DNA of 64,000 nt from Cellulomonas aerilata (GTDB lineage Bacteria > Actinomycetota > Actinomycetes > Actinomycetales > Cellulomonadaceae). The translations under genes were made by a program, and so were the position numbers. Under the pieces are notes generated by a model, which did not search any database, was not told the DNA's origin, and saw only the letters and a list, made by a program, of their open reading frames with translations. Location of the stretch: contig NZ_BJYY01000001.1 in NCBI RefSeq assembly GCF_007991755.1, forward strand, positions 124,001 through 188,000, in the 5' to 3' direction. Each line of letters starts with the position of its first letter. Position 1 is the first letter of the stretch. Positions 62,566 through 63,721 of the stretch are shown one piece after another.

Positions 62566-62840
62566 CCGCTCTGTCATCCAGCGTCCGCAGGGGTCGCCGA
62601 CCTGAGAGTTTGGCCGGTCCGCCGTGGCCCCTCGCGGGGCCCGGGGCGCGCCGGCTTGCACCGTCGGTGAGCCGGACCCGTCGTCGTGCGGGGCCGGCTG
62701 CTTTCCAGAGTTGCCTCGCCGTGGCGGTACGGGGGCCTGAGAGTTTCCCGGGGAGGGTTGCTCCTTCGGCGCCTCGCGCGTCCGGCGCGTCCGTCGGGGA
62801 CGGGCGGCCGGTGCGGGAGGGCTCTCCCGCCGCGGTTCGA
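62566..62840 (-). promoter_or_regulatory. Tandem glycine riboswitch
   Basis: Two glycine aptamers lie upstream of gcvP. Aptamer 1 has GGGAGAGCCCTCCCG, CGCCGAAGGAGCAA (62758-62771) and AAACTCTCAGG (62736-62746). Aptamer 2 has GGAAAGCAGCCGGCC, GCAAGCCGG and a second AAACTCTCAGG (62601-62611). The linker between them is short. Such tandem aptamers activate gcv expression when glycine is high. This fills nearly all of the 407-base stretch between gcvP and the Lsr2-like gene. Confidence 0.9.
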
Positions 62841-62921
62841 GCAGCATGTCGCGTTCAGTTGTCGTCCGTGGACAGGGTACGCGGCCGGGGGCCGATCCCT
62901 CTCGCCGGACCGCGCCGGGCG

Positions 62922-63140
62922 TCAGGCCGACGCGGACGACGACGCCGGCCGGGCCGTCCGTCGCGGCGAGGTGCGGCGACCGCTCGAGATGTACGGCTCC
63001 AGCGCGCGCAGGAGCTCGTCGCGGTGGGCGTCGGTCAGGTCGATCTCGTACGAGGTGTCGCCCCAGGAGAAGGCGTACGTCCGTGCGCCCTCCGAGCCGT
63101 CGAGGTCGTCCGTGGTGATGACGCGGGTCTGCTGGGCCAT
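62922..63140 (-). CDS. Lsr2-like protein with dimerisation domain only, 72 aa
   Basis: Lsr2 is the actinobacterial H-NS-like silencer with an N-terminal dimerisation domain and a C-terminal domain whose RGR motif binds AT-rich DNA. Here the N-terminal domain is clear: [47 protein letters not shown]. The sequence then ends in a short basic tail ([20 protein letters not shown]) and lacks the whole C-terminal DNA-binding domain (Lsr2 is about 112 residues). The downstream 80 bases contain no frameshifted continuation. It may modulate full-length Lsr2, or bind DNA only weakly through the Arg-rich tail. ATG 63140 matches the usual MAQ start. Confidence 0.8.
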
Positions 63141-63235
63141 GGGTCTCATCATGGCGGGTCGACGGCCAGCGCCGGGGACGCGCCGGACCCCGGCGAGCCC
63201 GCTCGGCCCACGGCTGACGCGTCGCGCCGTCCCCC

Positions 63236-63279
63236 TGCGCGGGCCTTGCGCGGGCCCTGCGCGGGCCCTGCGCCGGCCT
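63236..63279. repeat. 11-bp tandem repeat, four copies
   Basis: TGCGCGGGCCT-type units with a period of 11 bases occur four times, the last overlapping the stop of the zf-TFIIB gene. It lies upstream of the Lsr2-like gene, in the transcribed direction. Confidence 0.7.
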
Positions 63280-63721
63280 AGCCGAAGTCGAGCAGGTCCC
63301 CGAGCCAGGACTCCTTGCGCTTGCGGCGCGGGTCGTGCCCCCGCTCACCGTGGCGCTCGTACCGGGACCGGTCCTCCCCGTAGCGGCGACGGTCGTCGTC
63401 GTCGTACCGGCGGGGGTCGTCGGAGCGGGGCCGGTCGTCGGGGCGGGCGTAGCGCCGGTCGTCGTCGCCGTACGCCCCGGCGGGCGGGTACCCGCCGACG
63501 CCGTAGCCACCGGTGGAGGGCGCACCGGGGTCGTGGACCGGCACCCTGGGGGCCGGCCCGGCCGGAGCCGGCGAGGGTGCCAGCTCGGCTGCGCGGTCGA
63601 GGATCTTGTCGAGCTCGCCGCGATCCAGCCACACCCCGCGGCAGGTAGGGCAGTAGTCGATCTCCACGCCCTGCCGCTCGGTCATCACCAGGTCGACACC
63701 GACGTCCAGCGGACACCTCAT
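63278..63721 (-). CDS. zf-TFIIB (TFIIB-type zinc ribbon) domain protein
   Basis: This 147-residue protein begins with a short zinc-binding domain [40 protein letters not shown], with Cys3, Cys24 and Cys27 as zinc ligands. The rest is low complexity: Gly/Tyr/Pro, then Asp/Arg/Tyr repeats ([26 protein letters not shown]), then a basic [14 protein letters not shown] end. Such proteins are common in actinobacteria with unknown function. ATG 63721 gives the family start. Confidence 0.85.

What the first reader, a model, noticed from the sequence alone, without database searches (positions are those of the whole stretch)
62922..63140. Lsr2 homologue lacking the DNA-binding domain
The 72-residue protein has a full Lsr2 dimerisation domain but no C-terminal RGR-containing domain. 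It has its own start, and no frameshifted remainder follows, so it looks like a deliberate short protein rather than a pseudogene. It could poison or tune full-length Lsr2 filaments, as H-NS truncated paralogues do for H-NS. This role is inference.
Basis: partly seen in the sequence, partly recalled or inferred. Interest (0 to 1): 0.55.

Follow-up and report, generated by a model that had tools for sequence, protein, structure and literature searches.

The report
DNA-binding-domain-less Lsr2 protein
This bacterium carries a tiny relative of the gene-silencing protein Lsr2 that keeps the part for sticking to other copies but lacks the part that grips DNA; similar stripped-down versions turn up in related bacteria and in some phages, so they may be natural regulators of Lsr2 silencing.

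Summary
Window 62922-63140 (-) encodes 72 aa: a complete Lsr2 dimerisation domain (PF11774, 73.6 bits) plus a 15-residue tail, with no DNA-binding domain (DBD) in frame or nearby. The genome also has two full-length Lsr2 genes and a second short copy broken by TAG. The window gene is an insertion between a zinc-ribbon gene and the gcv riboswitch; 0 of 4 congeners have it there and one has an empty site. Its close relatives form a distinct subfamily: 24 places in 20 of 221 family genomes, of which 9 places in 8 genomes lack the DBD. In five genomes (two syntenic groups) the DBD-less form is under strong purifying selection (dimer-domain omega 0-0.11). Compact DBD-less Lsr2 proteins also occur elsewhere in the order, on two viral contigs beside an integrase, and in 5 of 11 hand-picked named phages (all Likavirus), annotated as 'DNA bridging'. 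A 2019 review lists natural truncated Lsr2 as 'unidentified'. Best reading: an Lsr2 counterpart of H-NST that co-assembles with Lsr2. Cautions: the subfamily has lost both residues of the known Lsr2 dimer salt bridge (0 of 23), so pairing with canonical Lsr2 is unproven, and selection on the window copy itself is weakly supported.

The parts
62922..63140 (-). CDS of the 72-aa DBD-less Lsr2 paralogue, stop codon included
   Evidence: PF11774 73.6 bits
62970..63140 (-). Lsr2 dimerisation domain, residues 1-57 (beta-beta-alpha)
   Evidence: PF11774 positions 1-57; AF2 model mean pLDDT 79.2 matches 4e1p, TM 0.80 by target length, 0.63 by query length
62925..62969 (-). 15-residue tail, [15 protein letters not shown]: three Arg, no acidic residue, in place of linker and DBD
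   Evidence: no DBD match
63148..63153 (-). Possible -10-like hexamer CATGAT, 7 nt before the ATG, suggesting a leaderless transcript (inference, read by eye)
   Evidence: similar element at about the same distance in several short and full-length relatives; no Shine-Dalgarno seen
62840..63277 (.). 438-nt gap between zinc-ribbon gene stop and glycine aptamer that holds the gene; the same gap is 93 nt and empty in congener G002

Best explanation
It is a scattered, probably horizontally moving Lsr2 paralogue without a DNA-binding domain that works as a natural modulator (anti-silencer) of Lsr2 nucleoprotein filaments. The dimerisation domain joins Lsr2 assemblies, either by subunit exchange in the dimer or by the N-terminal strand contacts between dimers, and contributes no specific DNA grip, so filaments and bridges are weakened and silenced promoters become easier to express. 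Shown: anatomy, no DBD, a class of DBD-less relatives of which two groups are under selection, canonical Lsr2 as the only other PF11774 protein found in five of the genomes. Inferred: physical contact with Lsr2, the direction of the effect, the role of the tail.
For: Complete dimer domain without DBD and predicted fold like 4e1p. DBD-less forms under purifying selection: Cellulomonas trio omega 0-0.045, G019/G138 0.11 in the dimer domain, 0.03-0.13 over the whole gene; both groups syntenic; canonical Lsr2 in the same genomes gives 0.06-0.08. G019, G138, G118, G064, G121 each have 2 PF11774 and 1 PF23359 match. Compact DBD-less forms in five further genomes, on two viral contigs beside a tyrosine-type integrase (omega 0.12), and in five Likavirus phages between ribonucleotide reductase and integrase. 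Precedent: an overexpressed N-terminal part of CgpS derepressed a prophage (PMC7074111, passages); Lsr2 R82A, defective in DNA binding, is dominant negative (PMC6584129, passages).
Against: Residues matching the D28-R45 salt bridge of the M. tuberculosis Lsr2 dimer (PMC3374832, passages) are absent in all 23 aligned subfamily members, while 26 of 37 rows outside it keep an acid and a base there; pairing with canonical Lsr2 may be poor. Selection on the window copy is marginal (P 0.057 against G019, 0.050 against the broken own copy, 0.002 against G138). The own genome's second short copy is broken. No congener of 4 has the gene at this site. DBD-less forms are rare: of the 80 nearest loci from named genomes only 5 lack an in-frame DBD, all five already known from the subfamily. 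Two of the five selected genomes are incomplete (G118 81%, G121 89%), and the looser search counted 4 places in G019, two of them unlisted. No expression or interaction data.
Confidence: 0.47

Rival explanations
1. Orthogonal protein: it forms homodimers or homopolymers through its altered interface, does not mix with canonical Lsr2, and acts through its basic tail as a weak non-specific DNA coater or as a scaffold for another partner.
For: Both salt-bridge residues are missing in all 23 subfamily rows. In 17 short tails K+R is 33% (61 of 184 residues) with 2 acidic residues.
Against: DBD-bearing subfamily members show the same interface, so it is not specific to short forms. First linker residues of 14 full-length members are nearly as basic (26% K+R), so the tail may be just a linker remnant.
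Confidence: 0.22
2. Drifting leftover in this genome: a mobile lsr2 paralogue whose window copy is intact by chance and is decaying, although short forms matter in other genomes.
For: Insertion at a variable site not shared by congeners, weak constraint on the window copy, sister copy in the same genome broken by TAG.
Against: No stop or frameshift despite synonymous divergence of about 0.3-0.6 from its nearest short relatives; fewer nonsynonymous changes than expected against G138 (P 0.002).
Confidence: 0.25
3. Cognate anti-silencer for DBD-bearing subfamily members carried on incoming plasmids or islands (incompatibility-like defence), not for the chromosomal Lsr2.
For: DBD-bearing members share the altered interface; one is on the plasmid pCPRO01; many show no shared neighbours.
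Against: No direct evidence. In the 8 genomes with a DBD-less copy no DBD-bearing copy of the subfamily was found; this fits the idea but does not favour it over the others.
Confidence: 0.06

Closest known systems
H-NST of E. coli (truncated H-NS)
   Same: A natural silencer paralogue without a DNA-binding domain, horizontally acquired, beside a full-length core silencer (reviews PMC7074111, PMC6936261, passages).
   Different: Unrelated protein family; H-NST is said to lack the oligomerisation site too, while this one keeps the whole Lsr2 dimer domain. H-NST antagonism was tested; this was not.
Lsr2 (M. tuberculosis; solved N-domain 4e1p/4e1r)
   Same: Homologous N-terminal domain (profile E 7.5e-24; Foldseek E 4.5e-4).
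   Different: No C-terminal DNA-binding domain; D28-R45 bridge positions hold G27 and L44.
Engineered forms: N-terminal CgpS fragment, Lsr2 R82A
   Same: Dimer domain without working DNA binding.
   Different: Artificial alleles in Corynebacterium and Streptomyces; the present ones occur naturally.
Likavirus 'Lsr2-like DNA bridging protein' (Sujidade gp49 and kin)
   Same: 71-76 aa, dimer domain plus basic tail, no DBD found.
   Different: Keeps D and R at the bridge positions (Sujidade and Lorelei checked); sits near a phage integrase; under 50% identical to the window protein over residues 3-51 (Sujidade 46.9%).
LsrL (Streptomyces) and MSMEG_1060, Lsr2 paralogues
   Same: Second Lsr2 copies.
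   Different: MSMEG_1060 binds DNA, though without the Q/RGR motif (PMC8125055, passages); that LsrL has a full C-terminal domain is recalled.

Membership tests
Lsr2 dimerisation-domain family (PF11774) | Matches the Pfam model over the curated cut-off (29.6 bits) | tested here: met
   73.6 bits, positions 1-57 of 58
Lsr2 dimerisation-domain family (PF11774) | beta-beta-alpha fold of 4e1p | tested here: met
   AF2 model with 50 rows pLDDT 79.2, TM 0.80 by target; a first model with 23 rows was poor, pLDDT 55.2; monomer model only
Lsr2 nucleoid protein (full) | C-terminal DNA-binding domain (PF23359) | tested here: not met
Lsr2 nucleoid protein (full) | D28-R45 inter-chain salt bridge residues | tested here: not met
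   G27 and L44 in the window protein; 0 of 23 subfamily rows. 11 of 37 rows outside also lack the pair, so it is not an absolute family mark
H-NST-type antagonist (functional class) | Natural paralogue lacking DBD, coexisting with the full-length silencer | tested here: met
H-NST-type antagonist (functional class) | Binds the full-length silencer | not testable with these tools
   needs co-purification or two-hybrid
H-NST-type antagonist (functional class) | Relieves silencing | not testable with these tools
   needs reporter, RNA-seq or ChIP
H-NST-type antagonist (functional class) | Window copy maintained by selection as a short form | tested here: inconclusive
   P 0.057, 0.050 and 0.002 against three relatives; clear selection only for the Cellulomonas trio and the G019/G138 pair

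The most novel reading that the evidence does not exclude
Actinobacteria and their temperate phages have repeatedly evolved DBD-less Lsr2 proteins ('Lsr2T') as dedicated anti-silencers, the Lsr2 counterpart of H-NST; the phage versions, now annotated as DNA-bridging proteins, would open silenced phage or host genes around integration or induction, and the window's subfamily evolved its own dimer interface.
Probability: 0.38. Interest if true: 0.75.

Novelty: new variant of a known kind. Interest (0 to 1): 0.55.

Why it matters
Lsr2 silences foreign DNA, prophages and antibiotic clusters in actinobacteria. A 2019 review lists natural truncated derivatives for H-NS and Rok but 'unidentified' for Lsr2 (PMC6936261, passages). 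A natural set of DBD-less forms, two groups of them under clear selection and some in cultured phages with a full-length relative at the same locus (Nanodon against Sujidade), makes counter-silencing of Lsr2 by subunit poisoning directly testable.

Tried and rejected
Recent local deletion of a full-length gene: rejected for this locus, since congener G002 has no lsr2 between the zinc-ribbon gene and the riboswitch (93 nt against 438 nt).

Frameshifted DBD: rejected for the window. For G103 only 322 nt of downstream sequence is held, so its check is short; the other eight have more than 4 kb held, of which 1.5 kb was searched.

Conserved gcv-locus partner: rejected; 0 of 4 congeners carry it there, and the loci of the other subfamily copies show no gcv gene.

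Single origin of all 9 DBD-less subfamily forms: undecided. AU test p 0.072 on all codon positions and 0.049 on positions 1+2. An earlier run (p 0.013) had one row (G199) out of register and is not used. In one search the G010 row was one codon out of register, so its pairs are not used.

Foreign, AT-rich gene: not supported; gene GC 73% against 75% for the locus.

A wide class among the nearest named relatives: not supported; 75 of the best 80 loci carry an in-frame DBD, and the 5 that do not are G103, G064, G118, G121 and G010 again.

G031 was first counted as compact; one search shows no clear start there, so it was dropped.

Close-match scan of genome contigs with the single protein found nothing; the alignment did. 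The first AF2 job was poor. PMC7002338 passages gave nothing on N-terminal fragments. Not tested: dimer modelling, expression.

Full report
Observation. The ORF at 62922-63140 on the minus strand encodes 72 residues. Residues 1-57 match PF11774, the Lsr2 dimerisation domain, at 73.6 bits against a cut-off of 29.6; NCBIfam has no match at E up to 1. The tail of 15 residues holds three arginines and no acid. A profile of 50 dimer domains matches two PDB sequences at E up to 0.01, the solved N-Lsr2 entries 4e1p and 4e1r, and a predicted structure (mean pLDDT 79.2, pTM 0.51) has the two chains of 4e1p as its only Foldseek matches at E up to 0.001. An earlier model from 23 rows was poor (pLDDT 55.2).

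No DNA-binding domain. In the own genome PF11774 has four matches and PF23359, the Lsr2 DBD, has two, both inside full-length lsr2 genes (proteins). The fourth PF11774 match, on contig C13, is a second short copy of the same subfamily, with TAG after residue 49 and, read past it, an end near residue 70 without a DBD. A DBD profile built from 14 relatives found nothing in the three sense frames up to 1.5 kb downstream of the 9 short genes (best E 0.11, for G121), while the 14, by construction, scored 5e-17 to 4e-23 and the independent G154 about 1e-19. For G103 only 322 nt downstream is held.

Locus. The gene lies between a zinc-ribbon gene (63278-63721; PF13453) and the glycine riboswitch (62715-62839) of gcvPTH. 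In congener G002 the same two neighbours are 93 nt apart with no gene between; in the window they are 438 nt apart. Near this spot G001 has a GNAT acetyltransferase gene, G004 a chemotaxis-receptor gene, and G003, without the zinc-ribbon gene, a methyltransferase-domain gene; 0 of 4 congeners has the short lsr2 there. It is therefore an insertion not shared by the sampled congeners, at a variable site. GC content does not mark it as foreign (73% against 75%).

Subfamily. A search of 221 genomes of the family (own included) with the window protein gives a clear gap: 24 places in 20 genomes at 71 bits or more and at least 59% identity, and the next at 53.9 bits. Of the 24, 15 carry a DBD (one of these, G154, has a disrupted start) and 9, in 8 genomes, do not: the window, its broken sister, G019, G138, G103, G118, G064, G121 and G010. 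One DBD-bearing member lies on the Cellulosimicrobium protaetiae plasmid pCPRO01. Several short and full members share, a few bases before the start codon, a -10-like element and show no obvious ribosome-binding site (by eye); leaderless transcription is my inference.

Selection. The Cellulomonas trio (G118, G064, G121) and the pair G019/G138 are syntenic groups. In the dimer domain the trio shows 0-1.5 nonsynonymous against 8-12 synonymous changes (omega 0-0.045) and the pair 4 against 11 (omega 0.11); binomial P 7e-8 to 2e-4. Over the whole gene omega is 0.03-0.10 and 0.13. The dimer domain of canonical Lsr2 in the same genomes gives 0.06-0.08. The window copy is less clear: 17 of 29 changes nonsynonymous against G019 (21.3 expected, P 0.057), 23 of 38 against its broken sister (P 0.050), 20 of 39 against G138 (P 0.002). 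These binomial tests ignore codon bias and saturation.

Partner. G019, G138, G118, G064 and G121 have two PF11774 matches and one PF23359 match each, so the only other Lsr2-type protein found is canonical Lsr2. G118 and G121 are 81% and 89% complete, and the looser search counted 4 places in G019, two of them not listed. G010 is similar, apart from one stray DBD in a long ORF. Yet all 23 aligned subfamily members lack both residues of the D28-R45 dimer bridge described for M. tuberculosis Lsr2 (passages of PMC3374832): position 27 is Q, G, S or N and position 44 is L or I; 26 of 37 rows outside the subfamily keep an acid and a base there. The change is shared by DBD-bearing members, so it is not specific to short forms. 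It weakens a simple heterodimer model and leaves N-terminal strand contacts between dimers as an alternative.

Wider class. The best 80 of 409 related loci in named genomes include only 5 without an in-frame DBD, all of them subfamily members already listed; so DBD-less forms are rare. In 109 genomes of the order, 94 have PF11774 and 94 have PF23359 (match lists truncated). I fetched 17 places, from that survey and, chosen for a short frame, a weak match or no visible DBD partner. Ten had no in-frame DBD by my profile. Five of these are compact with a start codon: G007 67 aa, G300 69, G292 60, G314 71 and G109 60; the others (G278, G275, G319, G012, G031) have longer or degenerate ends or no clear start. 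Of 24 viral-contig loci, three lack an in-frame DBD: L263, with a long tail, and L259 and L261, which encode 72-aa proteins followed by a conserved small protein (105 aa in L261) with no Pfam match and, on the other strand, a phage integrase (PF00589); omega between the two is 0.12. Of 140 phage records that match the L261 protein, I opened 11, chosen by hand: five Likavirus phages (Sujidade 71 aa, Godpower with the same protein, Lorelei 72, Danzina 76, Goby 76) have no DBD, and six (Nanodon, also Likavirus, phiScoe55, Endor1, Success, Culver, Aegeus) do. Omega within the five is 0.25-0.60, weaker than in the bacterial groups. The five genes lie between ribonucleotide reductase and an integrase (called serine integrase or S-int in four; in four a small opposite gene lies between) and are annotated as Lsr2-like DNA bridging proteins. 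Seven of nine convergent short proteins checked keep D and R at the bridge positions.

Origin. A tree of 171 nt is poorly resolved. One clade for all 9 DBD-less subfamily forms is not firmly rejected (AU p 0.072; 0.049 on codon positions 1+2), so several losses within the subfamily are possible but not shown. The other DBD-less forms are outside the subfamily by identity, so loss of the DBD has probably occurred more than once (inference).

Literature. The 2019 review (PMC6936261, passages) lists truncated derivatives as H-NST for H-NS, sRok for Rok and 'unidentified' for Lsr2. The 2020 review (PMC7074111, passages) reports that an overexpressed N-terminal part of CgpS derepressed the CGP3 prophage. 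The phage survey PMC8612146 (passages) discusses cluster BD lsr2 near the integrase and mentions H-NST as an example, without, in the passages seen, noting short Lsr2. Full-text searches listed no paper whose title or abstract start names a natural DBD-less Lsr2; two listed papers use the words 'truncated Lsr2' (PMC7858621, PMC6906086; listing only, not opened). Most subscription journals and all bioRxiv preprints are not held.

Verdict. A real, natural DBD-less Lsr2 paralogue, one of a rare but recurrent class. Most likely it modulates Lsr2 assemblies as H-NST does for H-NS; the contact with Lsr2 and the effect remain to be shown, and in this genome a decaying copy is not excluded.

Noticed in passing
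G000:C13:482517-482699 (L075 6496-6700, L004): Second short lsr2 copy of the same subfamily in the window's genome, broken by TAG after residue 49.
   Followed up: yes
L283, L285, L288, L289, L290: Likavirus phage 'Lsr2-like DNA bridging proteins' of 71-76 aa have no DNA-binding domain, while Nanodon of the same genus keeps one at the same locus; the annotation is probably misleading.
   Followed up: partly
L259 and L261, 4001-4219: Viral-contig modules with a 72-aa DBD-less Lsr2, a conserved small protein (hydrophobic by eye) and a tyrosine-type phage integrase (PF00589).
   Followed up: partly
L263 (viral contig): Lsr2 dimer domain followed by a long Pro/Thr-rich tail, frame of about 209 aa, no DBD found.
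   Followed up: no
G010:C12:179617-179715 and other PF23359 matches: Lsr2 DNA-binding domains inside long open frames without a listed dimer-domain match nearby, suggesting possible DBD fusions.
   Followed up: no
window 62840-63277: The spot between the zinc-ribbon gene and the gcv glycine riboswitch differs among congeners (chemotaxis receptor in G004, acetyltransferase in G001, nothing in G002): a variable site.
   Followed up: partly
window 62715-62839: Glycine riboswitch aptamer upstream of gcvP.
   Followed up: no
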